This document shows, one piece after another, positions 34,300 to 64,000 of a stretch of 64,000 nt of DNA; position 1 is the first letter of the stretch; each line of letters starts with the position of its first letter. The stretch is from Colletotrichum lupini (taxonomy: Eukaryota; Ascomycota; Sordariomycetes; Glomerellales; Glomerellaceae): positions 5,146,001 to 5,210,000 of the forward strand of contig NC_064678.1 of the NCBI RefSeq assembly GCF_023278565.1, in the 5' to 3' direction. A program made the position numbers and the translations under genes. The notes beneath the pieces were generated by a model. That model worked only from the letters and a program-made list of their open reading frames with translations. It was not told the origin of the DNA and did not search any database.

Positions 34300-35240
34300 A
34301 ACCCTGCTTATATAAAGACTCGAACGATCGCCTCTCGCTTTTTAAATATACGACTTATAAATAATATAGTACTTAACTATTATAGTAATAGTAGATAGGA
34401 GCTAAGCTTATAATTATTACGAGTTATAATATATAGTAATAGGTATACGGAGTATAATAAAAGTAACTTAATTATTAAAATAAAAATAGATAAAAAGAAA
34501 AGGTCTATATATATAATATTTAAAATAAATACGTAATTTAGTACGTAACAAGTACTTTATAAAGTACGATTATTATCCTTATTATATAATATACCCCCTA
34601 ATTACTACCGCTAAGGAGCTATTATATTTAAAATAAAATCTTTAAATACTTTTATAAAGGCCTAATTTAGTTAAAAAAAAAAAAAATTTAAGTATAAGGG
34701 ATATCTATTTTTTAAACTATATTTATTATAAATATATCTTTTTATTTAAAATAAATAGAATCCTAACTCGGAATAGTACGTATTTTATTATTTTTAATAT
34801 ATAAATTACTAAGGGCGAGGCTACTTAGCCGCTTTGCATATATTTAAATTCTTATAGCGTTACTTAGTTATTATTAAATTTTTTTTTTAACTTCTCGTAA
34901 TTATTATAAGTACTTGTATTTATTATGCGCGCGTACTTATATTATTAAATTATTTACTAATTTTATTTTAAATATAAATATTTAATATATTTAGAAATAA
35001 TAATAAGTTTTATATAATTTTTATAATACTTCTTATATATATATTATATAGTTTATTAAGAACTTAAATAAGTAATAATACTAACGAGCCTTTTTAAGTT
35101 ATTACTCCCCCTATAACCTCTTATTTACTTATTAAAGCTTAGTTATTAAGCTTTTTTTCTTTAGTTAAGAAGATATTAAGGTTATTAATTAAAATATTAA
35201 GGATTTTATTAAGTTTAAAGCTCTTTTTAATAATTATTAT

Positions 35241-35442
35241 TGGATTAAAAGTCTAATTCGACCGTAGTATATAGCCGACTGCGCAGGGGCTAATTAAGGG
35301 CCCTATTTATAATTATTATAGCTAGCCTAACCTATAGTTAGAACCTCCTTTTTATACTTACTATGCAAATCTTTATATAATTTAATTAATCTTTTTATTA
35401 ACTACGGTTCGAACTAACTACTTTATAATAGGGATACTAATA
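35241..35442 (+). repeat. LTR of the RIP-degraded element (left)
   Basis: 202 bp, homologous to 48387-48588 and, inverted, to 56424-56622. It includes the block GGTTCGAACTAACTAC near its right end. Confidence 0.8.
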
Positions 35443-38400
35443 CTAATTAGTAATTAAATTCTATTATTATAAATTAATAAAGTATCTTATTATATGAAAA
35501 AGACGACCTCCTAATATTATATAAGATAAGAAATTCGTACTAATTAACTTTATAAAAGTAGATAAAAAAGAAGGTAATTCTTAAATATTATATAAAATTA
35601 AGTAATTATAGCCCTTTATTACTTATAAAAAGTTAACGTCTATTATATTAAAATATATTAATTAATAAAACCGCTTAAATAACTAGCCTTTTACTATCGC
35701 CCCGAGTAGCTTTTTTACTAAATAACTTTTCTATAGCTAGCCTATAATTAAAAATTAACTAGTTAAATTAATAAAAAAAATACTTATATAATAACTACTT
35801 ATTTAATTAATTAGTATAATAAACGAGCTTAATAATATAATATAAAAAAGTACTACGTAATTAAAAAAAGGGATCTTTAAACGTAAACATTCTTACTTAG
35901 TAATAAAAATAACTTTATAAGAGTTATTAAGTTAAAATATTTATAATATATAAAAAAGTCTATTATTATAAGAATTTTATAAATATAACCTTAAGCCCGC
36001 GATCTAAATAACCTCTTTATAACTCTTTTAATTACCCCCCGGGTATTATTTAAAAATATAATATAAAGAATAGTTTAATAAAAGAAAAGGGGATTTAAAA
36101 GTCCTAATAATATTAAGTTAAGAGTATTACGGATTTTAAAAATTAACTTAAAAAAAAGGCGGCTATCCTAAAATAATCTTATAACCTCTTATTAAAGTTA
36201 TTATTAGCCTAAAAAAAAGCTAAAGAAATAAAAATCTAAAAAAAAAAAAATTCCTCTAAAAAGCTATTAAAAGGCTTTTTTTTATACTAACTCTTAGCGC
36301 AAAATTACTAATTTTAAAAAGTTAACTAAATAATAAAAAGGATCGCTAGTAAGTAATAATTACCTAACTATAATTAAACTATAAAAAAAACTATTTAAAA
36401 AATATAAAATAGGGTACTAAAAGGTTATAAAAATAAAATTTCTAAAGTATCTAACCCTACCGCGTACGAATAATAAATAAGTATTTTTAATAAATCCTTA
36501 AAATCTATAATTTTATAAAAAAAAGGGCTTAATTTTATTAACTATACTTAACGGCCTATACGGTTTTTAATAGCCTATATAGCTCTTTTATAAGCCGCTT
36601 AATATTTATTTTTAACTATTTTTATAAAATACTATTTTAAAAAAAGTAAGTTAAAAAAAGAAGTTATTTAAAAATTATAAAGAGTATAAGGCTTAACAGG
36701 TTAGAAGTATACGGGATAATAAAAATTAGTAATTAATAAAAATCCTAAGACTAATTACTATATCTTCTTATAATAATATAAACGTCTATTACTATTATTA
36801 TAAAAAAGAACTACTAAAACTTACCTTTTTATATTAAAAAAAAAAAAAAGATTTTAATAAGTATAATAATTAGTAATTTAAAAAAGTAATAGTAATTACT
36901 AAAAATAATAAAAACAAAAATAGTAATAAAATAATAAAAAAAAATAGGAATTTCCTAGACCCTAATAAATTCGTTGAGTAATAAAAGCACGGATTTACTA
37001 CGACTAATACGCAAATTAAATATATCCCTATTAAAATTAAATATATTAGTAATTACTAATACGAGTATAAACTAAAGCACGACCCTTAATAAGTTAAAAA
37101 AAAAAAAAGGATAAAACCCGATCTTAAATAGAATCCTAATCCCTTATAAATAAGTAAATATTAACCCGGACTATTAAAGAACGTAAATATATAAAATCGT
37201 AAATTAGCTTAATAATAAGTAAATTAATATAGTATTAATCTATTTAACTAAGGTTTATAAAAAAAAAGGGCTATAAGGGCAACCCTTATTTTATAAGATT
37301 ATAAATAACCTTAGTTACTAATTAAATGAATAATTTATAAGCGTAAGCTTAAGAATTATAAAAGTAGTTAATAAATTCTTTTACGGGCGAGGGGTATTAT
37401 TAATATAATTATAATTATAAAAGCTATATAAAATACTAATAATAATAATTATAAAAAAGGAATTCGTACTATAAAACTAAATATAGGTCGATAGAGCGTA
37501 TAATTACTTTAATAAATTTTAAGAAAAGGTAAACAACTTAGATTTCCTCCCTATAATCACTAATAAAAATCTATTATTATAAAAGGATATACCGGGGTAA
37601 AATATAATACTAAAAATACGATAATTAATAATTTTACTTATTTCGATCTATAACTCGTTACTATTACTAATATAAAATTTAGCGCTAATTAGCTAATAAA
37701 AAAAAAGGTAAATAACCTAAAATTACTAATAATACGTAGTAACATAGGGATCGTATATAAATACTAAAAATTTAGTAATAAATACGAGGTAATTTATAAA
37801 CTTTAAAAAAATCTTTTTAAAAGAGAAAATCTTTTTAAAAGAGAAATTATATTCTAAAGAGAAGTATAAGGTTTTATAAAAAACCTTAATAATATTTTAT
37901 AATTACTATAAGAAAATCAGAATTAAAGAATACTAATACTATTTAATAATTAATATTATACTTATAAGTAAAGCCTCTAATTATTATTATAAAGTAGTAC
38001 GTAATTTCGATTAAAACGACTTTTTTAATATAATTAACGCAATTTAAAGCCGCTTTAAGACCTATAATAAGAACCTAAAGCTCTTATCTAAGCTATAAGT
38101 AATTTCTTTTATATTTATAGCTAGGATAATAGAGGATAAATCGTAAATAAAGATCTTTGAAAAGCTTATTAATTAAATTAATAAACTAATAAAAACCTAG
38201 CTAAATAAGGGGATAAATAAGTAAAAAATTAAATATCTCTATACCGCAATTTAGTATATATTAAAAACAAAAATAACCCTATACTAAGTACTTAAAAACT
38301 ACAAAACGCTCTACTTAAAGCTAAAATCTAGTTTTAATATTAAAGTAAAAATACCGCGCCAAATCCACCTCTAAGTATATAACGGCCCTTATTAGTAATA

Positions 38401-41276
38401 TTAAGTCGATCGAACGTATAATAAAAAAAAAAGAGGCTAGATATAGTAATCGTTAGTAAAAAAGCCTAAATTCGTTAAATAAATAAAGATCTAACTTACG
38501 GGCAGAGTAATAAAAGAAGTAATACTATATTTATAAAAAAAATAGATATTAATTAAATAACTATTCTAAAGAAGAGCGTACTAAAGTATACGAATAATAT
38601 AAAAAGTCGAGGGTAGTAAATAGTAAAACTAGCCCTCGTTAGTTTAAATAATTCCTTATTATATATAAAAACAAATCTAAGGGTATAAAACTTAGTCATA
38701 GTAGTTAAAGTAGCGGCCTAAAGCATATACCCCCTATAAAAATTTAGAAAATAAAAAAGATCTTACCCCCTATACTAACGAATTAAATTATAATAAAATC
38801 GATAATATTAACTACTCTTTTTTTACCCCGTTAGCCTCTAGAGGATATATAAAGCTAAATAAATAAAAAGTAGCAGAAGCTCTTAATAAATAGGCTTTTA
38901 TTTATAAATAATAAAAAAAGGTCCCTTAAATAATAGATATTAAATAATTAAAAGGGTAAATTTAATAAGGCCAAAGCCCATTCTCTTAATAATTAAAAAG
39001 AAAATACTATCTCTCTTAATATTTAAAAAAAAAAACATAATACTAAGCAAATTTAGGGGTAGCTAAAGGGGTCCTTTTTATATTACCTAGATCCCTTAAA
39101 TACTAAACTTATATAAGTATTTTATATAAATAAAAAGTATAGCCTAGATAATTTTTATAAAATTATCCTAAATACTAAGGTATCGTAATAGTTAATTAAA
39201 AACAAAAGGTAATTCTAGGCGCTATAAAAGATCGTATTAATAACGATTAATATATTGATAATAAGTATTATAAAAATTAGTTTCGGCCTAAGTAAAAAAA
39301 TCGTTACCCTAAGTATAGTAAAAATAAAAACGTACTTCGGAATAATAACTTTCTATATTTTACTTATGAATACCCCATTTCTCTTATATTTAAAAGATAT
39401 AGATTAACTAAGTATTATATTTAATAATATAAAGAATAAAATCTCTAGTAATAAGCACTTTAAAATAATTAAATAATAATAGGGGTATACGTTTATAAAG
39501 CTCACTAATAATATAAAGTTAATTAATTACTTAATAAAAAATAAGCTTAAAAAACTATACTAGAGATTTAGGTACCTATTAGTTATGAAGCTATATAACC
39601 TCCTAAAGTAATTAAATAATAATAATATTAAAATAGGGGTACTAGAGTAGTTAATAAAAGTATATTATTAATACTAAATAAATACGTAGAGCCTACGTAA
39701 ATTTAAGTTTAAATTACGTAATAAGCTTAACTTTAACTAAAAAATCGTTATTAATATCTTTTACTTAAATAGTCGGCTAGTACTATATATAATTAACGTA
39801 ACTATATCTTTCTAAGTAAAGCAATTCCTCCGGGATTTATAAATAAAAATAATATAAACAGCCCTATAAAAAAGCTAAATCGATATATACTAAGGACCGC
39901 TAAATAGTATTAGAACCGATACTAATACTAGCTTTAAATCGGTAAAGTTTAAAAATAATATAATAGCTTATAATATATAACTAAAAGTTATACTTATTAA
40001 AGCGCACTATAATATTAAAAAGGTAAAAAGAGCACACTAGTAGTTAAAAAGGGCGTTTAGAATTATTAAAAAAAAAAGTCTAAATTTTATTAATAATAAA
40101 TACCTCTAAATAGTACTTAAATACTATAATAATATTATAAAGCCTAACGGACTTATACTAACGCTATTAATATTTAGAGTATATTTAAAAATAACCTTAG
40201 CCTTACTACCGTTACTAAGTATAAGCTAACGAGCCTAAGTAATTAAAAAAGTAATATAAGTACTGCGCGAGGTAAGTATAAAAAAATAAGTTAATAAAGT
40301 AATTACTATATATAATAAGCTTAATATAAGGAGTAATCTAAATATATTACTAAATTCGAATATATAAATATAATATAAAATTACTTAATAATAAGCTAGG
40401 CTATATAAATTAATTTTTATTAACGAGCGCTCTTATATAACTATAAAAAATCGTAACTAGTTAATTAAAATATTAATTATAGTAATTAAACCGTACTATA
40501 TAAATCTTAATAAAGTAACTTTTAACTTATAAAAAAAAAGAGCTAGAGGAAACTATATAATCCGTAGTAAAAGTATAAAAGATTATCCTTGATAAAATCG
40601 TTATAATAATACTAATAAACGATAAAAAAAAAATTACTAAAAGGGCACTAATACTACTAACAAAACGTTATAAAAAACTATAATAACAAGCCCTAACGTA
40701 GCAATTCATTATTAATAACGAAGTAATTAATACCTTTTATATAAAAAAAAAAAGCTAATTTCGAGCTAGTAATTAAACTACGTAAAAAAAGTATAATTAT
40801 AACTACTAAAAAGCTATATAAAAGATTAGATCTTATTAAAACAAATACTCTTCGTAATTAAGGGGTCTATTAATTTATCCTATATAACCTAAAAAGATAT
40901 ATAAACCTCTATATATTTAAATTATAAATAATTCATAAGATTAAAGGGAAAGGAACACCCTAGCCGTACGAAAAGTCTAAATACGTAATTTAAAAATACG
41001 GTAATATTAAAAAAATAACGCTACTTATATAATCGCCCACTATATAGCGCTATAGTTAATAATTAATAATAGTACTAATAGCATCGCTATAGAAAAAGGG
41101 ATATGAGATTTAGAGCCGTAATATTACCTAGGCCTATACCTAATTAGCTATAGGGCTTATAAGGAAAATCCTAGCTTATTTACTAAACAAAATAGCTAGT
41201 AAATACTTAAAAAGCACGATTATTAGAATACTTAAGCTACTATATAGGCTCGTAAAATTAGGCACTTATTAATAAG

Positions 41277-41790
41277 TGTTACGAAGGTAACTTTGTTTAC
41301 CTTATTATTCGCCTTATTATCAATATTACGTAAGCAAACTATATACCATATTAATCTACGATTTCTGTAGATTATTATAGGTATTGATTATGTAAGCAAT
41401 ACTGCTTATATAAGCTTACGTGAGCAGTGGAAAGTACTGGAAGATAACTGAATAATCTGGAATTTACTCGAGGCGGAATTACGTACTACGATTACGCATT
41501 CACTTACGTATATGCTTATTAATTATATCATAATTAATAAGCAATGGAATATTCTAGTAGGAGGTTTTTATGCCTATATGTAGGCGTGTATTTGCCTACC
41601 TAGACCTTTCGTTAAGCAAGCAACTTCTCATATAGTAATTCAACTATATTACTCTCTTTATTACAAAAACCTCTTTTATATACGCTTATTTCCCCTATAT
41701 TCATATATTCTTGCTTCTATATGAATATTCACTTTTCATATTCTATATAAGAATATCCCGCATTACCTCGTTAAAGCTATACGTGCTAGA
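41277..41790 (+). repeat. Copia 5' LTR
   Basis: 514 bp, beginning TGTTACGAAGG and ending GCTAGA. It contains a perfect 13-bp inverted repeat with a 3-base loop at 41514-41542. Promoter elements were not assigned. Confidence 0.93.
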
Positions 41791-41804
41791 GGTTATGAGC
41801 CCAG
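41791..41804 (+). other. Primer-binding site, half initiator tRNA-Met
   Basis: GGTTATGAGCCCAG is directly next to the LTR and complementary to the anticodon arm of initiator tRNA-Met, as in Drosophila copia and Ty5. The same core marks the outer short-LTR element. Confidence 0.85.
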
Positions 41805-42259
41805 TTATTATATAACTGAGGTTTTATTTACTTAAGTGAATATTATTCACTTATCCGAGCTCTTCTATTTTTATTTACCTATATCATACCTATTATCATT
41901 TAGGTATATGCCTTTATCCGGTATATGCATATTCATATATTGAGATATCTTACTCCGCCCAAAATCACTTTTTCGAATTCGAAAATTCGAAATCGACCTT
42001 TATATTTAATAAAGGATTTATATATAAAAAGGCAGACGAAGTGTAAGTCCTTTTTATACTATATACTTACTTTTATTAAATATCTATTTATAAGAAAAAG
42101 AAGTCAAAATAGACTTTTTCTTATATATATTTTTAGACTTAAAATAAGTCTATTTTCAAGCTTAAAAACAAGCTTGAATTCTAAGCTTAAAGTAAGCTTA
42201 TTTATACTAGGAACAATACTAGTATATATTTATATTATATATATTCTAAAATATATATA
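41805..42259 (+). other. Copia leader with an array of perfect hairpins
   Basis: At least six perfect inverted repeats follow closely: 41833-41853 (10-bp stem), 42090-42124 (11-bp stem), 42135-42151, 42155-42178 (9-bp stem), 42182-42200 and a palindromic TTCGAATTCGAA block. A 111-codon frame from ATG 41925 ends in TAA at 42258-42260, overlapping the Gag-Pol ATG by one base (TAATG). Its product is rich in Ile, Leu, Tyr and Lys and is not recognised; it may be chance in AT-rich DNA. Confidence 0.6.
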
Positions 42260-45200
42260 ATGGCGGATATTATCAAGGCAATTACAGGCTGCCTTATGCC
42301 TGAAAATCAACGCCTAAAAGGTAGTCAAAATTGGACTACTTGGCTTTCTACTCTTCATATTTATCTTCGACTTTTGAAATTAAATACCTATTTCGAAGTT
42401 GAAAACGAATATGAAAATATTACTGAAGAGCAAAAAACCCAATCCTTATTATTAATAAGGCAAAATATTCAACCTGAGCCTCTTTCACTTATTTTTGATC
42501 AAATTGATCCAAAAGAGGCTCTTAATACCCTTAAAGCATCCTATGAGGGTACAGGACCAGTTCTACGTCAACAATTATACCTCGAATTCCACGCTATTAG
42601 ATTGGAGCATTTTAATAGCTTAAATGAGTTTATTAGCTCATTTAAAAGCTATATTTCCAAATTAAAAAGCGTAGGAGCTATTATTGAGGATATAGACCAA
42701 AAAACGGTCTTTATATCAGCCCTAACTAATATCTTTCCGATTTGGGCTGATCGTCAAAGGTCTAATTTAAGACTTAAAGAGCCCCCTACTTTAGAGGCTC
42801 TTATTACGGATATATTAGACGAAAATAGGAGAGAAATCGATACTCCTATGTCTAGTAATACTATTAAGAGTAATAAATACTCTCGAAATAAGTATAATAA
42901 GTCTAAGACTTATTATAAGCAAAATACCAACCCAAATACCAACCCAAATAAGCCCTCAAATTACCCAAATAAGCCCTCAAATAAGCCCTCATATCAACCC
43001 AAACCAAACCAACCCCGAAACCAGCCCCGAAACCAACCAAACCAGCCCAATCTTTTTACGAAAAACCAACGCCCACATGGAGATTTGAACCCTCAGCCCT
43101 TACAATCAAGGAATTATATGGTTAGTGGTTCCGACCACTATACCATAGACCCACTTGATGAAAATTATCAACCTTTTCTCCCTCATATATTACCCAACTC
43201 GACTCCAAATGATAATTTGGGCCTTTCGGGAGAAAATACCAATAATTCGGCTAATATGGGCACAAATACAACTGAAAGGTGGTTGTATGATACGGGTTCA
43301 ACAGTCCATATTACTAATAGTATGGATTTATTCGAAAATTTCGATAATAGGGACAATTTACCCCCTATTCGAACCGGAGCTGGCCCAGTTTACCCACAGG
43401 GTATTGGGGACTTAATTTTACCTATCTATTTACGGGGTAAAATTATACCTATAAGGTTAAAAAATACCTTATATATTCCAGAATTCCCACTTAATATCTT
43501 TTCAGGTATATTACACTACAAAAATGGTGGATATATTGAAAAGAATTATTTAGTGGATTCTGAGGGCAATGTATTTGCTTATTTGGATTTCAAAAGGCAT
43601 GGATTTTTCCTTAATATTGCTTGGAAAAATCGAAGGCCTACTACAGGGTACCAACAAAACGATTTGGACCCTAAAAATCAGTATTTGGATCTAAAAAATA
43701 TTTTAGAATCCATTCAAAATTCTCTTCATAATATTACTATTAATAATAGTAATATAGAGAAAAATACTGATTATTTATCTGAAAATTCAGATAATCAGGC
43801 CTATTCAATCACCCAGGAATGGCACGAAAAATTAGGTCATCCTTCTTACCCTTATTTATTAAAAACTGCGAAAATAACTAAGGGAATTCCTTTAGACAAA
43901 TTAAAGGAAAAAGACCTAAATTGCCCGAGCTGTACTACAGCTAAGTTAACTAGGCAACAGCCTAAAATTAACTATAATCGGGCATTATTTCCACTAGAAA
44001 GGGTCTGTATTGATACAGTTAAAATTACCCCTACTACTATTAGTGGAAATAATTACGCTATTCCGTTTACGGATGATTTTACTGGTTTTCGAGATGTTGA
44101 ATTCTCAAAAACCAAAGAGAATATAATTAATATTCTCAAAAACAAACTGGAATTTTATTTTAACCAGTTTAATTCCTACCCTAAGTATATACGCTTAGAT
44201 AATGGTACGGAATTCAATATAGGGGAATTATTACCCTATATTAACGAAAAAGGCATTATTTTAGAGCCTTCCACGCCCTATACGCCCGAGCAAAATGGTA
44301 TAGCCGAAAGGACTAATAGGGCCCTTATCGAAAAGGCTAGAACTATTTTATTAGCAGAGAAATTACCCCTATATTTATGGGACGTAATTTTGAAAGAATT
44401 AACTAAATTAGTTAATTTTACCGCTAATATACGCCTTGAAAAGACCCCTATCGAGGCTTTTCTCGATTATTTCTTCCCAAAAAGAAATAATAAGCCGGAT
44501 TTATCTAATCTAAGAAAAATCGGCTCTAGGGTACTTATTTATTACCCTACTCAAAAGCGAGTCACTTCGAATAAAATGTATACCTATACTCAAAATGGTA
44601 TATATTTAGGAAAAGAAGGTAATAATATATATGTTATATATTGCCCTTCTAATCCTTTTCGATCTCGATTATTACGGACTTCGCATATTCGATTTATTCA
44701 AAATAATAGAATAGAGGGGGTAGAAAGCGTAAATCCTCCTTTATATTCTAAAATTTTTGATAAAATCGAAGATATTCAGGAAATACCTTCTAAAATAGAG
44801 GTATTAATTCCCAAATTATCTGAGGAAGAAAAATCTAAATATAAAGATTTTACTCAGAGTATTACCCTACCTCCAGAGCCTAATACACTAAAACAGGCTC
44901 TAAATAGCTCAGAAAAATCAGAATGGTTAAAAGCTATATATTCTGAGCTAGAGGTTATTATTAAAAAGGGTACTTTATTAGCTATAGACCCAAATAAGGT
45001 CTATAAAGCTAATAAAAATCCACTATCTACTAGATGGGTCTTTAAACGAAAAATCAATATTAATACTGGTAATATTGATAAATATAAGGCCCGATTAGTA
45101 GTTAGAGGCTTCGAACAACAGTATGGAGTCGATTATTTCCAAACTTTTGCTTCTGGAAGTAATCCTACTACCTATAGGGTACTTATAGCCCTATCTGCCC

Positions 45201-46507
45201 CTTTAAACTGGCATATACACCAAATTGACGTTATTGGTGCCTTTTTAAATGGGGATTTATTAGAAGAGGTATATATAGACCCTTCTAATATACCTTTAAC
45301 TGAATTTTTTGAAAAATACCCTAATTTAAATACTATAAATTGGGATAAATCAAAAAATCAGTTATTACAGCTTTTAAAAGCCTTATATGGGCTCAAACAA
45401 AGCCCTAGACAATGGCAACTAAAGCTGAAGTCTATTTTTAATAAAATAGGCTTTTTACCTCTAAAATCCGATGAGGCTACCTATTTCAACCAGGATTTCA
45501 AAAATCCTGCTTTTATTGTTACCCACGTCGATGATTTCCTTATATTTAATAAAAATATTAAATATATAGAGGAAATTAAGGGTAAAATATCGAAATATAT
45601 CGATATTAAAGACCTAGGCGAAGCCTCGAATTTCCTAGGCGTCAAAATTACTAGAAATCGGTCTAATAAGACTATTTCTCTCTCTCAAAGTCATTATATT
45701 AAGGAAATTCTTAATAATAATGATTTTTCCAAAGCTAAAATCACTAATATACCTATAAATCCGGGTATATTAAATAGTGATTTAGGGAACGAAAAAGATG
45801 ACTATTTACCTTCAAAAGAGCTATTAAAGACCTACCAGCACCTAGTAGGATCTTTAATGTACGCTATGGTTGTGACTAGGGCTGATTTAGCTTTTTCAGT
45901 CTCTTTCGTCTCCCAATACCTCCATAAGCCCACTATTTACCTACTTAAGGTAGTAAAAGGTATTTATAGATACCTTAGTGGCACTATTCACTATAATATT
46001 ACCTATAATGGTAATATTGGGCCTGTAGAATTAGTAGGCTATACTGATTCTAACTGGGCCGGGTGTAAAAGTACTAGAAAATCAACTTCTGGGTACTTAT
46101 TTACACTAAATGGAGGTCCGATTAGCTGGAAGTCTAAAAAACAGTCTACTATAGCACTTTCTACTACAGAGGCTGAATTTAATGGACTTCAGGAAGCTAT
46201 TCGGGAAGCTATTTGGCTTCAGAATTTATTATCGGAAATAGGTTATCAAGTTAAACCTATTACTATTAAAACCGATAATAATGGGGCATTATCTCTTGCT
46301 TATAATCCTGAATATCACCAAAGGACTAAGCATACTGCCCTATATTATTATTATACTCGACAGGAAGTAGAAAAAGGGAATATTAAAGTAGAATATCTCC
46401 CTTCTACTATAATGCCTGCCGATGGGTTAACAAAACCCTTACCTCGGGTTAAACATAAGGAATTCGTTAAGCTAATAGGCTTAAACGATCCTAATAACCC
46501 TATTTAA
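42260..46507 (+). CDS. Copia Gag-Pol polyprotein, intact
   Basis: One 1,415-codon frame with the copia order Gag, protease, integrase, reverse transcriptase, RNase H. Gag (about 1-200) has the UBN2-type opening GSQNWTTWLSTLHIYL; an Asn/Pro/Lys-rich repeat linker follows, and no CCHC zinc knuckle is seen. The protease has DTGS at D344. Integrase has an HHCC-type region (WHEKLGHP...CPSC) and the catalytic D585, D647 and E683, the last two 36 apart as in the D,D35E pattern. Reverse transcriptase has D990 and V-D1091-D1092 (HVDDFLIF), and the copia block KALYGLKQSPRQW. RNase H has D1263 (YTDSNWAG), E1304 and D1339 (TDNNGAL), and ends MPADGLTKPLP. All catalytic residues are present, so it could be active. 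Codon third positions are mostly A/T, unlike host genes. Confidence 0.96.
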   Translation: MADIIKAITGCLMPENQRLKGSQNWTTWLSTLHIYLRLLKLNTYFEVENEYENITEEQKTQSLLLIRQNIQPEPLSLIFDQIDPKEALNTLKASYEGTGPVLRQQLYLEFHAIRLEHFNSLNEFISSFKSYISKLKSVGAIIEDIDQKTVFISALTNIFPIWADRQRSNLRLKEPPTLEALITDILDENRREIDTPMSSNTIKSNKYSRNKYNKSKTYYKQNTNPNTNPNKPSNYPNKPSNKPSYQPKPNQPRNQPRNQPNQPNLFTKNQRPHGDLNPQPLQSRNYMVSGSDHYTIDPLDENYQPFLPHILPNSTPNDNLGLSGENTNNSANMGTNTTERWLYDTGSTVHITNSMDLFENFDNRDNLPPIRTGAGPVYPQGIGDLILPIYLRGKIIPIRLKNTLYIPEFPLNIFSGILHYKNGGYIEKNYLVDSEGNVFAYLDFKRHGFFLNIAWKNRRPTTGYQQNDLDPKNQYLDLKNILESIQNSLHNITINNSNIEKNTDYLSENSDNQAYSITQEWHEKLGHPSYPYLLKTAKITKGIPLDKLKEKDLNCPSCTTAKLTRQQPKINYNRALFPLERVCIDTVKITPTTISGNNYAIPFTDDFTGFRDVEFSKTKENIINILKNKLEFYFNQFNSYPKYIRLDNGTEFNIGELLPYINEKGIILEPSTPYTPEQNGIAERTNRALIEKARTILLAEKLPLYLWDVILKELTKLVNFTANIRLEKTPIEAFLDYFFPKRNNKPDLSNLRKIGSRVLIYYPTQKRVTSNKMYTYTQNGIYLGKEGNNIYVIYCPSNPFRSRLLRTSHIRFIQNNRIEGVESVNPPLYSKIFDKIEDIQEIPSKIEVLIPKLSEEEKSKYKDFTQSITLPPEPNTLKQALNSSEKSEWLKAIYSELEVIIKKGTLLAIDPNKVYKANKNPLSTRWVFKRKININTGNIDKYKARLVVRGFEQQYGVDYFQTFASGSNPTTYRVLIALSAPLNWHIHQIDVIGAFLNGDLLEEVYIDPSNIPLTEFFEKYPNLNTINWDKSKNQLLQLLKALYGLKQSPRQWQLKLKSIFNKIGFLPLKSDEATYFNQDFKNPAFIVTHVDDFLIFNKNIKYIEEIKGKISKYIDIKDLGEASNFLGVKITRNRSNKTISLSQSHYIKEILNNNDFSKAKITNIPINPGILNSDLGNEKDDYLPSKELLKTYQHLVGSLMYAMVVTRADLAFSVSFVSQYLHKPTIYLLKVVKGIYRYLSGTIHYNITYNGNIGPVELVGYTDSNWAGCKSTRKSTSGYLFTLNGGPISWKSKKQSTIALSTTEAEFNGLQEAIREAIWLQNLLSEIGYQVKPITIKTDNNGALSLAYNPEYHQRTKHTALYYYYTRQEVEKGNIKVEYLPSTIMPADGLTKPLPRVKHKEFVKLIGLNDPNNPI
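43066..43152 (-). other. tRNA-like segment, antisense inside the copia frame
   Basis: On the minus strand this stretch has an A-box-like TGGTATAGTGG followed by a perfect hairpin GTGGT-CGGA-ACCAC, a second hairpin CCTT-GATTGT-AAGG, and a B-box-like GGTTCAAATCTCC near its end, spaced as in a tRNA gene with a long variable arm. The acceptor and T stems pair poorly. It lies in the Gag-protease linker and is translated as part of the polyprotein. It may be a degenerate captured tRNA sequence; real transcription is not shown. Confidence 0.35.
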
Positions 46508-46574
46508 CCTATATTATACCCCTAATATAGGTATTTATTTTCCTTATATTTTATGAATACTTTAAGGAAAATAC

Positions 46575-46652
46575 TCTAGGGTACCAAAAGATTGTTCTAG
46601 GGTACCAAAAAACTATTCTAGGGTACTAGAAATCTACTCTAGGGTACTTGGT
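46575..46652 (+). repeat. Four tandem 21-bp units before the copia polypurine tract
   Basis: TCTAGGGTAC recurs at 46575, 46596, 46617 and 46638, exactly 21 bases apart, between the stop codon and the polypurine tract. Each unit centres on GGTAC followed by A-rich sequence. Confidence 0.85.
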
Positions 46653-46679
46653 TAGCTATTTCAACATAGCTAATAAGGC

Positions 46680-46690
46680 AAAAGAGGGAG
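46680..46690 (+). other. Copia polypurine tract
   Basis: AAAAGAGGGAG ends exactly where the 3' LTR begins, the expected plus-strand primer. Confidence 0.88.
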
Positions 46691-47203
46691 TGTTACGAAG
46701 GTAACTTTGTTTACCTTATTATTCGCCTTATTATCAATATTACGTAAGCAAACTATATACCATATTAATCTACGATTTCTGTAGATTATTATAGGTATTG
46801 ATTATGTAAGCAATACTGCTTATATAAGCTTACGTGAGCAGTGGAAAGTACTGGAAGATAACTGAATAATCTGGAATTTACTCGAGGCGGAATTACGTAC
46901 TACGATTACGCATTCACTTACGTATATGCTTATTAATTATATCATAATTAATAAGCAATGGAATATTCTAGTAGGAGGTTTTTATGCCTATATGTAGGCG
47001 TGTATTTGCCTACCTAGACCTTTCGTTAAGCAAGCAACTTCTCATATAGTAATTCAACTATATTACTCTCTTTATTACAAAAACCTCTTTTATATACGCT
47101 TATTTCCCTATATTCATATATTCTTGCTTCTATATGAATATTCACTTTTCATATTCTATATAAGAATATCCCGCATTACCTCGTTAAAGCTATACGTGCT
47201 AGA
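46691..47203 (+). repeat. Copia 3' LTR
   Basis: 513 bp; by eye it is identical to the 5' LTR except for one C missing in a run of four. Confidence 0.93.
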
Positions 47204-48386
47204 ATAAGCTACCTACTACGATTTTTATATTAATTAATTATTAATAGTTATTTCTATATATAACCCGTACTTACTAATCGTAAAGTACGAAAATAATTAA
47301 TTTAGGATTATTAAAATATAGACTAATAATATATTAAGCCTATTTAATATTAACTTTATAAAAAAAGAGAATAAAGAGCTTTAAAAAGCGGGCTTTATAA
47401 TAAAGCTAAAAAAAGTCCTTATAATAAATACCCCCTTAGTATTTAATAATAGGATTCTTATAATTAAAAAAAAAACTATTGTTTTTTAATAAAAAGGGTA
47501 GAATAAAAAGATTAACCTCGTTAATCTAAACGTAACCGATATTAAAAAGTAATATAAAGCTAAGCTCGTATAAGGAGTATATATTATAAATATTTATTAG
47601 CCCGAGGTAACGTTTAATTACGCTAGGGTAACGTAAGTTATAAATCTAACTAAATAAGATATTAAAGTACTTAATAAGCGGCTTAAGTAGTAATAAATAA
47701 ATCTTAATTAAGGTCTTATTTACTACTTAATTAACTTTATAATTAGTAAGCTTTACGTCTTTATTAATAAGTTATTTATAAATAATAATAACCTTATTTC
47801 GTAATTAGGGTATATTATTATCCTAACTAATAAGAATATAAATAAAAATAAATTTACTATATATAGCAATATAATCCACTACTTATTAACTAAAAATAAA
47901 TAAATAATAAGAAATATATTAATATTAAAGGTTTATAGTATAGTTAATAACATTAACCTCTTTTACGCAATTTTAATAACGCTAAAGAAAATTATTAATC
48001 AAATTAGCCTTTTACTTATTTTAACGGTTATTTATACTAATTCCTACTCGCTCTATAAATACCTCGTTAAATTAAGAATAAAAAAAGAAAAGCTTATAAT
48101 TAATATTATAGCCCTTAGGTAATTATATAAAAAGCGCAAAATACTTAAGATCCGTTAGATTAATAATAAAAATAACTTTATAAACGCTTTTATAAAAGTA
48201 ATACTAAATAAGGGATTAGAGTAATTCATAAGTAGTAAAAAAGTTATTATATAAATAAAGGGATAGGTTATATAAAAAAAGTAAAAAAAAGGGAGAAAAA
48301 GGAGATAACTTAATAAACGGGCCCGAGGTTAAATTATACCTCTAACTATAGTAATTAAATTAATAAAAAAAAAAGAAAGTTAGTAT

Positions 48387-56622: not shown

Positions 56623-59600
56623 ATACTAACTTTATTTTTTATTTATTAATTTAACTACTATAATTAGAGGTATAATTCGACCTTAGGCCCGTTTATTAAG
56701 TCGTCTCCTTTTCCCCCTTTTCTTTACTTTTTTTATATAACCTATCCTTCTATTTATATAATAACTTTTTTATTACTTATAAATTACTTTAATCCCTTAT
56801 TTAATACTACTTTTATAAAAGCGTTTACGAAGTTATTTTTATTATTAATCTAACGAATTTTAAGTATTTTATGCCTTTTATACGATTACCTAAGGGCTAT
56901 AATATTAATTATAAGCCTCTTTTCCTTCGTTATTCTTAATTTAATAAGGTATTTATATAGCGAGTAGGAATCGGTATAAATAACTATTAAAATAGGTAAA
57001 AAGCTAATTCGATTAGTAATTTTCCTTAGCGTTATTAAAATTATATAAGAGAGGTTAACGCCGTTAATTATACTATATATTTCTAACGCTAGTATACTTC
57101 TTATTACTTACTTATTTTTAGTTAATAAGTAATAAATTATATTACTATATATAATAAATTCGCTCTCGCTTATACTCTTATTAGCTAGGATAATAATATA
57201 CCCTATTTACGAAGTAAAGTCGTTATTATTTATAAATAACTTATTAATAAAAATATAGAGCTTATTAATTATAAGGTTGATTAGGTAATAAACGAGACCT
57301 CGATCGAGATTTATTTATTACTATTTAAGCCGCTTATTAAATACCTTAACGTTTTATTTAGTTAGATCTATGGCTTACGCTATTTTAATATAGTTAAAAG
57401 TCGTTTTAAGCTAATAGATATTTATAATATATACCCCTCGCGCGAGCTTAGCTTTATACCGCTTTTTAATATCGGTTTTATTTAAATTAACGAGGTTAAT
57501 CTTCTCGCCCTACCCCTTTTATTAAAAAATAATAGTTTCCTTTTTAATTATAAAAATCCCGCTATTAAATATTAGGGAGGTATTTATTATAAGGACCTTT
57601 TTTAATTTTATTACGAAGCCCGCTTTTTAAAGCTCCTTATTCTCTTTTTTTATAAAATTAATATTAAATAGGCTTAATATATTATTAGTTTATATTCTAA
57701 CGATTTTAAATTAGTTACTTTCGTACTCCGTAACTAGTAAGTATAGGTCGTACGTAGAGGTAACTATTAATAATTAATTAATATAAAAATCGTAATAAGT
57801 AGCTTAATAATAGGTGCCCGATTTTGCGAGCCTATATAGTAGCTTAAGTACTTTAATAATCGTGCTTTTTAAATACTTACTAACTATTTCTTTTAGTAAA
57901 TAGGCTAGGATTTCTTTTATAAGCCTTATAACCGATTAGGTATAAGCCTAAGTAATATTACAGCTCTAAATCTCGTATCTCTTCTTTTATAATAATACTA
58001 TTAATATTATTATTAATCGTTAGCTATAGCGCTATATAATGAGCAATTATATAAGTAGCGTTGCCTTTTTAACGTTACCGTACCCCTAAATTACGTATTT
58101 AAACTTCTTATACGGCTAGGGTATTCTTTTTTTTTTAATCTTATAAACTATTTATAATTTAAATATACGGAGGTTTATATATTTTTTTAAGTCGTATAGG
58201 ATAAATTAATAAACCCCTCGATCGTAAAGAGTATTTACTTCGATAAGATCTAATCCCTTATATAGTTTTTTAGTAATTATAATTATACCTTCTTTACGTA
58301 GTTTAACTACTAGCTCGAAATTAGCTTTTTTCTTTACTATATAAAAGGTATTAATTACCTCGTTATTAATAATAAATTGCCGCGTTAGGGCTTATTATCG
58401 TAGTTTTTTATAACGTCTTACTAGTAATATTAGTGCCCTTTTAGTAATTTCTTTTTCCTTATTATCTATTAGTATTATTATAACGATTTTATTAAGGATA
58501 ATTTCTTATACTTTTACCGCGGGTTATATAATTTCTCCTAACTCTTCTTCTTTTTATAAATTAAAAATTACCTCGTTAAGATCTATATAATACAGTTTAA
58601 CTACTATAATTAATATTTTAAATAGCTAATTACGATCTCTCGTAATTATATAAAAGCGCTTATTAACAAAAATTAACTTATATAGCCTAGCCTATTATTA
58701 AGTAATTTCGCGCTATACTTATATATCCGAATTTAGTAATATATTTAAATTATCCCCTATATCGGGCCTATTATATATAGTAATTACCTCGTTAACTTAC
58801 TTTTTTATACTTAACTTACGCAATACCTATATTACTTTTTTAATTACTTAAGCTCGTTAGCTTATACTTAGTAACGGTAGCGAGGCTAAAGTCGTTTTTA
58901 AATATATTTTAAATACTAATAACGTTAATATAAGTCCGTTAGGCCCTATAGTATTATTATAATATTTAAGTACTATTTAGAAGTATTCGTCGTTAATAAA
59001 ATCCGGATTTTCTTTTTTAATAATTTTAAACGCCCTTTTTAATTACTAATATGCCCTTTCTACTTTTTTAATATTATAATACGCTTTAACGGGTACGACT
59101 TTTAGTTATATATTATAAGCCGTCGTATTATCCCTAAATTTTATTAATTTAAAGCTAATACTAACGTCGGTTTTAATACTATTTAGCGGTCCTTAATATA
59201 TATTAATCTAGCTTTTTTATAAGGCTACTTATATTATTATTATTTATAGATCCTAGAGGAATTGCCCTATTTAGAAAGATATAGCTACGTTAATTATATA
59301 TAGTACTAGCTAACTATTTAAATAGAAAATATTAACGACGATTTCTTAGTTAAAGTTAAGCTTATTATATAATTTAAACTTAAATCTATATAGGCTCTGT
59401 GTATTTATTTAGTATTAGTAATATACCTTTATTAACTACTCTAGCGCCCCTATTTTAATATTATTATTACTCAATTACTTTAAGAGGTTATATAGCCTTA
59501 TAACCGACGGGTATTTAAATCTTTAATATAGTTCTTTAAGCTTATTTTCCGTTAGGTAATTAATTAACTTTATATTATTAATAAGCTTTATAAACATATA

Positions 59601-62600
59601 CCCCTATTATTATTTAACTATTTTAAAGTACTTACTATTAAAGATTCTATTCCTCGTATTATCGAATATAATGCTTAGTTAATTTATGTTTTTTAAATAT
59701 AAGAGAAATAGAGTATTAATAAGTAAAATATAAAAAGTTATCGTTCCGAAGTACGTCTCTATTTTTATTATACTTAGGGCGACGATTTCTTTACTTAGGC
59801 TAAAACTAATCCTTATAATACTTATTATTAACGTATTAAGCATTATTAGCGCAATCTTTTATAATACTTAGAATTACCCTTTTTTTCTAATTAACTATTA
59901 TAATACCTTAATATTTAAAATAATCCTATAAAAATTATCTAAGCTATACCTTTTACTTATATAAAATACTTATATAAGCTTAGTATTTAAGGGATCTAAG
60001 TAGTATAAAAAGGACCCCTCTAGCTACCCTTAGATATACTTAGTATTATATTCCTTTTTTTTAAATATTAAAAAAGAGAGCGTCTTCTCTTTAATTATTA
60101 AGAGAATAGGCTTTGGCCTTATTAAATTCGCCCTTTTAACTACCTCTATATCCGTTATTTAAAGGACCTTCTCTTATTATTTATAAATAAAAGCCTATTT
60201 ATTAAAAGCTTTTATTACCTTTTATTTATTTAGCCTCGTATATCCTCTAGAAGCTAATAGGGTAAAAGAAAAGTAATTAATATTATTAATTTCGTTATAA
60301 TCTAATTTATTAATATAGGGAGTTAGATCTTCTTTATTTTCTAAATCTTTTATAAGGGGTATATACTTTAAGCTACTATTTTAACTACCGTTACTAAGTT
60401 TTATACCCCTAGATCTGCCCTTATATATAATAAGGAATTAGTTAAACTAATAAGGGCTAGTTTTACTATTTATTACTCTCGACTTTTTATATTATTTATA
60501 TAATTTAGTACGCTCTTTTTCGGAGTAGTTACTTAATTAATATTTATCTTTTTTATAAATATAGTATTACTTTTTTTATTACCTTACTCGTAAGTTAAAT
60601 CTTTACTTATTTAATAAATCTAGGCCTCTTTACTAACGATTATCGTATTTAGCCTCTTTTCCTTTTTTATTATATATTTAATTAACTTAATATTACTAAT
60701 AAGGGCCGTTATATATTTAAAAATAAGTTTAGTACGGTATTCTTATTTTAATATTAAAACTAGATCTTAGCCTTAAATAGAGCGTTTCGTAGTTTTTAAG
60801 TACTTAATATAAGGTAATTTTTACTTTTAATATACGCTAAACTATAATATAAAAATATTTAACTTTCCGCTCGTTTATCCCCTTATTTAGCTAGGTTTTT
60901 ACTAGCTTATTAATTCGATCGATAAGCTCTTTAAAAATCTTTATTTATAATTTACCCTCTATTATCCTAGTTATAAATACGAAAGAAATCGCTCGTAGTT
61001 TAAATAAGAGCTTTAGGTTCTTATTATAAGTCTCGAAGCGGCTTCGGATTACGTTAATTATACTAAAAAAGTCGTTTTAATTAAAATTACGTACTGTTTC
61101 GTAATAATAGTTAAAAGCTTTGCTTACGAGTACGATATTAATTACTAAATAGTACTAGTATTTGCTAATTTTAACTTTTTCGTAGTAATTATAAAATATT
61201 ATTAAGGTTTTTTATAAAACCTTATACTTCTCTCTAAAGTATAATTTCTTTTTTAAAAAGATCTTTTTAAAGTTTATAAATTACTTTATATTTATTATTA
61301 GATTTTCGGTATTTATATACGATCCTTACGTCGCTACGTATTATTAATAACTTTAAGTCGTTTATTTCTTTTTTATTAGCTAATTAGTACCGAATTTTAT
61401 ATTAGTAGCGGTAACGAGTTATAAATCGAAATAAGTAGAATTATTAATTATTATATTTTTAGTATTATATTTTGCCCCGGTATATCCTTTTATAATAATA
61501 GATTTTTATTAGTAATTATAGGGAGGAAATGTAGGTTATTTACTCTTTTTTTTAATTTATTAAAGCGATTATACGCTCTATCGACTTATACTTAGTTTTA
61601 TAATACGAATTCCTCTTTTATAATTATCGCTAATAGTATTTTATATAGCTCTTATCATTATAATTACGCTAATAATACCCCTCGCTTATAAAAGAATTTA
61701 TTAACTACTTTTATAATTCTTAGGCTTACGCTCGCGAACTATTTATTTAGTTAGTAACTAAGGTTATTTATAATCTTATAAAATAGGGGTTACCCCTATA
61801 GCCCCTTTTTCTTATAAACCTTAGTTAAATAGATTAATACCGCGTTAATTTACTTACCGTTAGGCTAATTTATAATTCTATATATTTATATCCCCTAATA
61901 ATTTAGGTTAATATTTACTTATTTATAAGGGATTGGGATTTTATTTAGGATTAGGTTTCGTCCTCTTTTTCCTTATTTTAACTCACTAAGGGTCGTGCTC
62001 TAGTTTATACTTATATTAATAATTATTAGCGTATTTAATCTTAATAAGGATATATTTAATCCGCGCGCGGGTCGTAATAAATCCGTACTTTTATTACTTA
62101 ACGAATTTATTAGGGTTTAAAAGATTCCCGCTTCCTCTTACCGTTTTGATACTACTCTCGTTTTTACTATTTTTAGTAATTACTATTACCTTTTTAAATT
62201 ACTAACTATTATACTTACTAAGATCCTCCTTTTTATTTAATAAAAAAGGGTAGGTTTTAGTAGTTCTTTTTAATAATAATAGTAATAAACGTTTATATTA
62301 TTATAAGAAGATATAGTAATTAATCTCGGGATCTTTATTAGTTATTAATTCCCGTTATTTTATATACTTTTAGCCTCTTAAGCCTCGTGCTCTTTATAAT
62401 TCCTAAATAGCTTCTTTAGTTAATTTCTTAAAATTAGTAATCTCGTACTAGGAGTTAATATAAAAAAAAAGCCTTTTAGCAGCCCTTTAGAGAATTCCTT
62501 TTTTTTCTCTTTAGATCCTCGTTTTTTTAGCTTTCTTTTAGGCTAATAATAATTTTAATAAGAGGTTATAGGACTACTTTAGGGTAGCCGCCTTTTTTTT

Positions 62601-62950
62601 AAGTTAATTTCTAAGATTTATAATATTCTTAGTTTAATATTATTAAAACTTCTAAATCCCTTCTTCCCTTATTAAACCGTCCTTTATATTATATTCCTAA
62701 GTCATATTTAGGGAGTAGTTAAAAGAGCTATAAAGAGGTCGTTTAGATTACGGGCTTAAGGTCGTATTTATAAAATCCTCGTAATAATAAACTTTCTTAT
62801 ATATTATAAATCTCTTAGCTTAATAACTTTTATAAAATTACTTTCGCTACTAAATAAGAATATTTACGTTTAGAAATCCCCTTTTTTAATTACGTAGTAC
62901 TTTTCTATACCGTATTTTTACTAATTTAACTAGTTAATTTTATAAGAGAT
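56424..62950 (-). mobile_element. Second RIP-degraded copy of the Gypsy-like element, inverted
   Basis: From 56424 the sequence is the reverse complement of the element at 35241-48588, with its nested copia missing. The 199-bp LTR (56424-56622) starts TGTTAGTATCCC. Blocks at 57,800-57,980, about 60,000 and 62,470 match 41,276-41,100, 39,060 and 36,250 of the first copy. Homology stops near 62,950, before the other LTR, so the copy is truncated or interrupted. No frame survives. It disrupts the P450 gene. Confidence 0.75.
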
Positions 62951-64000
62951 TAGGCTATGAGCACTTAACTAGCGAGGCTATAATATAGGTATGGGTATAT
63001 TATAAGACTAAAGCTTATAGAGTCTTTCGTAAGGGCTCTGCTTTTTAAAAAGTTCTTTTATAATAAGATCTGTATACCGGTCGCTAAGTTATCGGCATCT
63101 TATCGCTAGCCGCATCCCGAATCTATTATAATTACTCCCCCCTTATATAACTTTAGTCCCCAAAGTCATTACGTAATATCTTTTTTTAACGCTAATAATA
63201 AAGCTATTAACGTCGTTATTCGTAATAGATTCCGTAAGGCGTTAATAATATCCTTTCTTACTTAGGAATAAGGCATTGCTCCTATCTCCTTATCTAACGG
63301 ATGCCTTATTATTATTATTTGGTAATAGCGCGCTAACTAGTTACTAGGTTAGTAATATGTATTCGTAGTAAAGTATTCTAACCGTCGTAATATATAAGAG
63401 CCTGCCTAACCTCGTAGTTATTATTATTACTAAGCTATCGATTATAGTAAAAGATTTTTCGTCCGTTACTAGTTACGTGTTTACTTTTTCTTCTCTCCTT
63501 TTATTCGGCAACCGTTCTACGAATTCTTTTTTATATAACTATACTTTTCTTTTTACGATATTCTAATTCCGTATCGTTTCCTAATTATAACTCTCTTGCT
63601 ATACTATTGCTAAGTATTTGTTAAAATATCTACTATTTTATATATCTAGGACATACTTAATATAGAGTATAATTTTAAAAAGGGCTTCTGCAGTCTCCGT
63701 AGTAGTGCTCCCTATATACGCTACTTAGCTAGTCTATATCGCAATATCGACGAGCTTATCTATATCGCTAGCGCTCACGTCGCTAAGTATATTATTTATT
63801 AAATTAATAAAAAGAAGTATTCTACCATAAGTCGTCGAGTCCTCGCTAATCCGTTACTAAAATATTAGCTAACGATATCTCTTAGGTTCCCGAGGAGCTA
63901 TATAGCGCTACCTAGTTTACTTAGAATACCCTTATAGAGTTTTATAATACTAAGGAGTAGGGTAGCCTTAACTCTTATAAGCGCGGCCGCGTTTTTTATA
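62951..64000. other. Unidentified AT-rich, RIP-like sequence
   Basis: Homology to the Gypsy-like element has ended. The stretch has somewhat more GC than the rest of the block, still with dense stops on all frames. It could be another element nested in or joined to the second copy. No termini were recognised. Confidence 0.5.

What the first reader, a model, noticed from the sequence alone, without database searches (positions are those of the whole stretch)
41277..47203. Copia element tiled with perfect short hairpins, including the coding frame
Reading the element by eye, perfect inverted repeats with short loops follow each other in the LTR, leader and Gag-Pol frame. Stem pairs with positions: 41514-41526/41530-41542 (13 bp), 41833-41842/41844-41853 (10), 42090-42100/42114-42124 (11), 42155-42163/42170-42178 (9), 43731-43741/43745-43755 (11), 44117-44124/44130-44137 (8), 44217-44224/44234-44241 (8), 44397-44406/44408-44417 (10), 45053-45062/45070-45079 (10), 45542-45551/45556-45565 (10), 45995-46003/46010-46018 (9). 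Nested two-part stems occur at 44974-45016 and 45739-45782. With base pairing at about 0.28-0.30 per position, only one or two stems of 9 bp or more with loops under 15 would be expected in 6 kb. In the frame this requires synonymous choices that favour self-complementarity. It may reflect quasi-palindrome (template-switch) mutation during reverse transcription, or selection for RNA structure.
Basis: partly seen in the sequence, partly recalled or inferred. Interest (0 to 1): 0.8.

Follow-up and report, generated by a model that had tools for sequence, protein, structure and literature searches.

The report
Fungal retrotransposon with hairpin-packed RNA
A jumping gene in a plant-infecting Colletotrichum fungus has its RNA, including the protein-coding part, packed with many more small hairpins than chance allows, apparently because its codons were chosen so that the RNA folds tightly, at about the level of strongly folded RNA phages.

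Summary
All 11 listed stems are exact. The element holds 41 perfect stems of 8 bp or more (loop 0-15) against 4.0 in dinucleotide shuffles; its Gag-Pol frame holds 24 against 3.6 (synonymous shuffle) and 6.5 (junction-preserving shuffle); no shuffle reaches the observed value. Folding energy exceeds 350-nt dinucleotide shuffles by about 51% across the frame; host fragments give -1%, RIP-degraded flanks 5%. The same method gives 22-35% for two genes each of phages MS2 and Qbeta, with similar z. Another Copia in the genome and 11 distant Copia loci show far less. Shuffling only codons for conserved residues still loses structure (z -10). The sense strand is favoured (z -4.3, -3.2), though G-U pair counts do not show this. 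Best reading: selection for genome-wide structure of the sense RNA of a half-tRNA-primed Ty1/copia element. Template-switch mutation is less supported but may have supplied stems. A within-family substitution test was inconclusive. Function (shielding from silencing or nucleases, compaction for packaging) is inferred.

The parts
41272..41276 (.). target-site duplication ATAAG, left copy (right copy 47204-47208)
   Evidence: sequence; the flank's inverted second copy runs on undisturbed near 57803-57806 (arms I2 and I5)
41277..41790 (+). 5' LTR (514 nt); carries perfect stems 41352-41374, 41513-41543 (14 bp) and 41697-41728 (11 bp)
   Evidence: 513 aligned bases identical to the 3' LTR with one 1-nt indel; stems; sense fold z -5.0 for 41277-41792
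41791..41804 (+). primer binding site GGTTATGAGCCCAG, complementary to the anticodon region of tRNA-Met(CAT): half-tRNA priming
   Evidence: sequence; 8 genomic matches of the tRNA core, one of the 8 fetched and called tRNA-Met(cat) by ARAGORN
41805..42259 (+). leader; 42089-42262 folds as six back-to-back hairpins ending at the start codon
   Evidence: sense fold z -8.8 for 41793-42259; structure; stems
42260..46507 (+). single open Gag-Pol frame of 1415 aa, tiled with hairpins; gag, integrase and RT by Pfam, protease (DTGS) and RNase H (TEAEF) by recalled motifs only
   Evidence: 24 stems vs 3.6; folding z -21.7 sense; 350-nt fragments 51.6% more stable than shuffles
44974..45016 (+). two-part stem with an asymmetric 2-nt bulge in the frame
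   Evidence: fold -17.2 kcal/mol
45739..45782 (+). two-part stem with a 4-nt bulge in the frame
   Evidence: fold -14.2 kcal/mol
46508..46690 (+). 3' untranslated part with hairpins, a 21-bp tandem repeat (46568-46647, 3.9 copies) and a purine-rich tract just before the 3' LTR
   Evidence: sense fold z -3.9
46691..47203 (+). 3' LTR (513 nt)

Best explanation
This is a recently active Ty1/copia-type LTR retrotransposon of a Colletotrichum fungus whose full-length sense RNA is under selection to fold into closely spaced local hairpins. Codons were chosen, at conserved as well as variable residues, to complement neighbouring sequence. At 33% G+C, stable stems must be long, which would explain why they look like perfect 8-14 bp palindromes (inference). 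Shown by computation: the excess, its sense-strand preference in folding energy, its spread over the whole element, and its absence or much lower level in host blocks, RIP debris and other Copia loci. Inferred: that structure is a selected property of the genomic RNA. Most likely use (inferred, roughly even between the two): keeping the RNA poorly accessible to Argonaute or other silencing and nuclease attack without forming duplexes long enough for Dicer, and compacting the RNA for packaging into particles.
For: Perfect stems of 8 bp or more exceed composition-, protein- and codon-preserving nulls 3.7- to 10-fold, more for longer stems. 120-nt folding z in the sense strand -21.7 (codon shuffle) and -15.3 (junction-preserving), antisense -14.6 and -11.8 (strands out of phase); in phase, codon shuffle, -20.4 and -17.6. 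Sense-minus-antisense energy, same windows: native 1.15 against 3.13+-0.46 and 2.78+-0.51 kcal, 0 of 80 shuffles each. The energy gain from allowing G-U pairs is kept in the sense strand (-3.78 vs -3.93 in shuffles) but reduced in the antisense (-4.67 vs -6.79). In the element without its 3' LTR, G-U-bridged helices are 8 vs 2.3 expected, A-C-bridged 4 vs 3.4; one-sided p for the G-U share 0.057, and 0.037-0.038 at the other two cut-offs. Shuffling only 304 conserved codons: z -10.2 sense, -7.9 antisense. 80 of 80 fragments exceed shuffles, by 22-89%. Enrichment is confined to loops under about 80 nt (12 shuffles). No uninterrupted helix over 14 bp even with G-U and loops 3-500. Host has two stop-free Piwi-domain frames and two neighbouring pairs of RNase III domains.
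Against: No structure was probed. The number of G-U pairs in the predicted folds falls alike in both strands (sense 167 vs 214, antisense 271 vs 363), so the strand preference rests on energy alone. With only conserved codons shuffled the strand difference is weak (1.15 vs 1.68+-0.30). Helices bridged by other mismatches are also in excess (26 vs 14.1). No covariation could be shown: the polarity-free substitution test is not significant for the sense strand (36 lineage vs 152 private changes, p 0.23) and is nominally so for the antisense (p 0.039), the opposite of the sense reading; young-only variants look neutral (n=39, p 0.24). The three codon registers are about equally enriched, whereas purely synonymous tuning would favour two of them. 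Short-range direct repeats are also in excess (element 36 vs 9.3; frame 21 vs 12.2). The MFED percentage is inflated by low G+C: in z and kcal the element is similar to Qbeta, not beyond it. No null was computed for the 14-bp maximum.
Confidence: 0.62

Rival explanations
1. Templated mutation: foldback or intramolecular template switching during reverse transcription repeatedly turned imperfect inverted repeats into perfect ones, and stems persist without being useful.
For: Stems are often perfect with short loops; the codon registers are about equally enriched; a weak complementarity exists in the codon positions 1-2 (74 runs vs 54.7+-7.4); stems of 8 bp or more lie at residues less conserved among 11 homologs (27% vs 37%); G-U pair counts show no strand preference.
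Against: It gives no reason for the sense-strand preference in energy or for tuning at conserved codons. Codons in stems of 8 bp or more are not significantly less like the two nearest relatives than the rest (51.5% vs 48.7%, p 0.60; 46.7% vs 52.9%, p 0.27). A copia in the same genome and 11 distant copia loci with the same kind of enzyme show far less.
Confidence: 0.2
2. Both: foldback mutation by this element's reverse transcriptase supplies hairpins and RNA-level selection keeps them.
For: Combines the register-independent perfect stems with the sense bias in energy; short direct repeats are in excess too.
Against: No single event was caught between copies; only one pair of facing changes was seen among the shared changes, a G-C to A-T pair of the RIP type.
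Confidence: 0.13
3. DNA-level function (cruciforms, or single-stranded cDNA hairpins).
For: Both strands fold far better than shuffles.
Against: DNA-level selection should be strand-symmetric, yet the energy comparison favours the sense RNA.
Confidence: 0.04
4. By-product of low G+C, low complexity or RIP.
For: The element is 32% G+C; one RIP stretch, 57000-63500, has a stem excess of its own (26 vs 12.7).
Against: Dinucleotide, codon and junction-preserving shuffles all fail to reach the element's counts; two of three RIP flanks, at roughly 18-28% G+C, are near the shuffled number; a distant copia at 34% G+C has 3 vs 1.9 stems.
Confidence: 0.01

Closest known systems
[quoted passage not shown]
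   Same: Sequence-order-dependent folding excess spread over the whole RNA including coding sequence, made of many consecutive stem-loops; the abstract and passages of PMC7642675 give 7.5-10.7% for HCV, 12.5% for human pegivirus, about 15% for SARS-CoV-2 and 23.4% as the highest recorded in vertebrate RNA viruses. The abstract of PMC3950689 links GORS to weaker innate recognition of the RNA.
   Different: Here it is in an LTR retrotransposon of a fungus; about 51% by the same kind of measure; made of long perfect A-T-rich stems; vertebrate interferon sensing does not apply.
Single-stranded RNA phages MS2 and Qbeta
   Same: Coding RNA folded throughout: z -4.9 to -7.3 and 24-34 kcal per 350 nt below shuffles in the maturation and replicase genes, against -6.9 and 31.0 here. 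Qbeta genes also have a small perfect-stem excess (2 vs 0.4 and 3 vs 0.15).
   Different: The phage genes have 1-3 perfect stems of 8 bp or more each; the element has 24 in its frame.
Ty1/copia retrotransposons (Drosophila copia for the half-tRNA primer, recalled; yeast Ty1 and Ty3 for probed RNA structure)
   Same: LTRs, integrase before RT, primer from the anticodon half of tRNA-Met. PMC11381356 (passages) reports a well-folded core of about 19.4% of Ty3 RNA.
   Different: Distant copia loci tested here, by the longest open stretch of each, fold only -2.6% to 17% better than codon shuffles, against 55% for this element.
Quasipalindrome-associated template-switch mutation (PMC7202029, search listing with start of abstract only)
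   Same: Produces perfect inverted repeats with short loops (recalled).
   Different: Described there for E. coli DNA replication; predicts no strand preference of the RNA.

Membership tests
Ty1/copia LTR retrotransposon | paired LTRs with a short target-site duplication | tested here: met
   LTRs identical but for one 1-nt indel, TSD ATAAG
Ty1/copia LTR retrotransposon | integrase before reverse transcriptase, RVT_2-type polymerase, copia-type gag | tested here: met
   Pfam order gag_2, Pol_BBD, gag_pre-integrs, rve, SH3, RVT_2; RVT_2, gag_2 and Pol_BBD pass their curated cut-offs, gag_pre-integrs, rve and SH3 fall below theirs
Ty1/copia LTR retrotransposon | tRNA-derived primer binding site next to the 5' LTR | tested here: met
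   14-nt match to the anticodon region of tRNA-Met
Ty1/copia LTR retrotransposon | zinc knuckle CCHC in Gag (common in the group, not universal; recalled) | tested here: not met
   no CX2CX4HX4C in the frame, in P0001 or in L061
GORS | folding energy exceeds sequence-order shuffles throughout, coding region included | tested here: met
   80 of 80 fragments, mean 50.5%
GORS | acts in the sense RNA | tested here: met
   energy bias in the same-window test, z -4.3 and -3.2; indirect, and G-U pair counts show no bias
GORS | structure confirmed by probing and linked to persistence | not testable with these tools
   needs probing and in vivo assays
Template-switch (quasipalindrome) product | multi-base one-arm replacements templated by the other arm, seen between copies | tested here: inconclusive
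   copies differ by RIP-type and few other changes; one pair of facing changes, RIP type

The most novel reading that the evidence does not exclude
An LTR retrotransposon has turned its whole genomic RNA, coding frame included, into a phage-like folded genome that hides from RNA silencing, possibly with its own reverse transcriptase writing the hairpins by foldback synthesis and selection retaining those that help.
Probability: 0.3. Interest if true: 0.85.

Novelty: new variant of a known kind. Interest (0 to 1): 0.65.

Why it matters
Genome-wide ordered RNA structure has been discussed for RNA viruses. A fungal retroelement with structure at ssRNA-phage level, beside another copia with little of it in the same genome, is a natural test of why RNA genomes fold: vertebrate immune sensing cannot be the reason here, so silencing, nucleases, packaging or something else must be. 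Three paper searches that joined GORS or folding-energy terms with retrotransposons or transposable elements showed no earlier case in the titles listed (5 of 5, 12 of 27 and 8 of 50 papers listed); most subscription journals are not in that library, so this is weak evidence of novelty.

Tried and rejected
Low complexity, A+T richness and RIP as causes: rejected for the element by shuffles, two of three RIP flanks, host blocks and other Copia loci. Four RIP-degraded loci of other Copia families (L078-L081) have 9-14 stems at 8 bp vs 5.6-8.4 expected, and all four lie above the mean at 9 bp (3-6 vs 1.6-2.8; L079 6 vs 1.6, 0 of 60 shuffles), so a small excess is not unique to this family. Among the 11 distant loci, L073 has 4 vs 0.9 (0 of 40), and 10 of 11 fold somewhat better than codon shuffles.

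Substitution test: at first lineage changes seemed strongly structure-sparing. I withdraw that reading, because a change that arose in the reference lineage looks unpaired in the reference fold. The polarity-free test is not significant for the sense strand (p 0.23) and nominally so for the antisense (p 0.039).

A first sense-antisense comparison used windows out of phase between strands; the same-phase repeat is weaker but holds.

Relatives with DNA: viral contigs gave none with one protein or with alignment A1; genome contigs gave 11 distant loci, probably eukaryotic contamination of prokaryote assemblies (inferred). The nearest proteins, P0001 and P0002 (47-48% identity over 36% and 58% of the query), come from sources whose DNA could not be scanned here. 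Rfam: no match at gathering scores.
Full report
WHAT IT IS. Positions 41277-47203 hold a complete LTR retrotransposon: two LTRs that differ by one 1-nt indel, a TSD of ATAAG, and one open frame of 1415 codons. Pfam places copia-type gag, integrase-side domains and an RVT_2 polymerase in Ty1/copia order (three of six domains are below their curated cut-offs); protease and RNase H are read from recalled motifs only. The primer site next to the 5' LTR matches the anticodon region of tRNA-Met, a half-tRNA primer. The host is a Colletotrichum of the acutatum group, judged from one host gene in the window that is 100% identical to a C. simmondsii protein and 99% to one of C. acutatum. The genome held is 63.4 Mb; 34 matches to the protein were found (a lower bound), of which 20 cover all 1415 residues at 100% (rounded) identity without a stop. 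Older copies carry RIP: of 362 CpA sites (both strands), 66-89% are changed in the five copies examined, one of which covers only part of the element. RIP in transposon families of the genus is described in PMC6180176 (passages). So the family was hit by RIP in the past and has since multiplied again (inference).

THE HAIRPINS. All 11 listed stems are exact. The whole element has 41/24/15/9 perfect stems of at least 8/9/10/11 bp with loops of 0-15, against 4.0/1.1/0.3/0.1 in 200 dinucleotide shuffles, none of which reaches the observed value. The frame has 24/14/7/3 against 3.6/1.2/0.4/0.1 in 200 shuffles that keep the protein and the codon set, and against 6.5/2.7/1.5/0.4 in 100 shuffles that also keep the bases at codon junctions. 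The excess falls off with loop length and is gone by about 80-120 nt. The leader just before the start codon folds as six hairpins in a row.

FOLDING. In 120-nt windows the frame folds at -26.6 kcal/mol, codon shuffles at -17.1 (z -21.7) and junction-preserving shuffles at -18.2 (z -15.3); leader z -8.8, LTR -5.0, 3' part -3.9. In 350-nt fragments against dinucleotide shuffles the element is 50.5% more stable on average, with each of 80 fragments between 22% and 89%; 20 host fragments average -1.0% and 41 RIP-flank fragments 4.9%. As a yardstick with the same method, two MS2 genes give 22 and 28% and two Qbeta genes 34 and 35%; mean z is -4.9 to -7.3 for the phages and -6.9 here. The percentage is pushed up by low G+C, so the fair statement is that the element folds about as far beyond chance as Qbeta. 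Published values for vertebrate viruses reach 23.4% (PMC7642675, abstract and passages).

CONTROLS. Another intact Copia in this genome (L061) has no such stem in its frame (0 against 0.8 expected) and folds 7% better than codon shuffles. Eleven distant Copia loci in prokaryote assemblies, by the longest open stretch of each, have 0-4 stems and fold between -2.6% and 17% better; one (L073) has 4 stems against 0.9 expected. The low-G+C one (L072, 34%) has 3 against 1.9 and 9%. This element stands at 55% by that measure. Four RIP-degraded loci of other Copia families show a small excess (9-14 vs 5.6-8.4). The trait at this strength therefore belongs to this family, or to its unsampled near relatives, and not to Copia elements or this genome in general. 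A weak hint that the nearest relatives share it: complementarity in the codon positions fixed by the protein is slightly high in this protein, P0001 and P0002, but also, and more clearly, in the distant P0005.

RNA SELECTION OR TEMPLATED MUTATION. Three results favour selection on the sense RNA. First, Watson-Crick complementarity serves both strands equally, but G-U pairs serve only one: the sense strand keeps its energy gain from G-U pairs while the antisense loses about a third of it, and the sense-minus-antisense energy is lower than in all 160 shuffles (80 of each kind). Against this, the count of G-U pairs falls alike in both strands (sense 167 vs 214, antisense 271 vs 363). Second, shuffling only the 304 codons whose residue is conserved among homologs costs 3.5 kcal per window, z -10.2. 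Third, codons in strong stems are not significantly more diverged from the two nearest relatives than the rest. On the other side, the three codon registers are about equally enriched, short direct repeats are also in excess and helices bridged by other mismatches too (26 vs 14.1), which leaves room for a mutational contribution. The direct test, whether changes in the living lineage spare the structure, failed to decide: after an apparently strong result I found it confounded by polarity; the corrected test is not significant for the sense strand and nominally significant for the antisense (p 0.23 and 0.039).

HOW IT MAY WORK. The same RNA must be translated, packaged and reverse transcribed (established for LTR retrotransposons). 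The host has two stop-free Piwi-domain frames, two neighbouring pairs of RNase III domains that look like Dicers, and C5 DNA methyltransferases (by domain only). Closely spaced hairpins of at most 14 uninterrupted pairs would leave few open sites for Argonaute or single-strand nucleases and no duplex of Dicer length (recalled, about 20 bp), and would compact the RNA. This step is inference; experiments are listed under next steps.

VERDICT. Real and strong, and at this strength seen only in this family among those tested; a new variant of a known phenomenon (genome-scale RNA structure) in an unexpected kind of genome.

Noticed in passing
window 40735-41276 and 47205-48109 against 56902-58344: The copia sits inside an older RIP-degraded repeat whose inverted second copy at 57.8 kb runs on undisturbed through the insertion site (arms meet with a 4-nt overlap, close to the 5-nt target duplication).
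   Followed up: partly
window 46568-46647: A 21-bp unit repeated 3.9 times lies between the stop codon and the 3' LTR; function unknown.
   Followed up: no
G000 C5:6816400-6816747, C2:7982760-7983095, C2:7858758-7859096, C8:30690-31028: Four stop-riddled Piwi-domain fragments of similar length, three of them within about 31 kb of contig ends: perhaps a degraded, mostly subtelomeric repeat that carries a piece of an Argonaute-like gene.
   Followed up: no
window 42870-43060: The C-terminal part of Gag is an Asn/Pro/Lys-rich repeat stretch without a zinc knuckle; folding excess is lowest nearby (fragments starting 42957-43167: 22-32%).
   Followed up: no
window 57000-63500: This RIP-degraded stretch has a stem excess (26 vs 12.7, 0 of 60 shuffles) that its inverted counterpart at 34300-41270 shows only weakly (23 vs 17.3).
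   Followed up: no
L067-L077: Eleven contigs filed under bacterial or archaeal assemblies encode Ty1/copia proteins, probably eukaryotic contamination.
   Followed up: no
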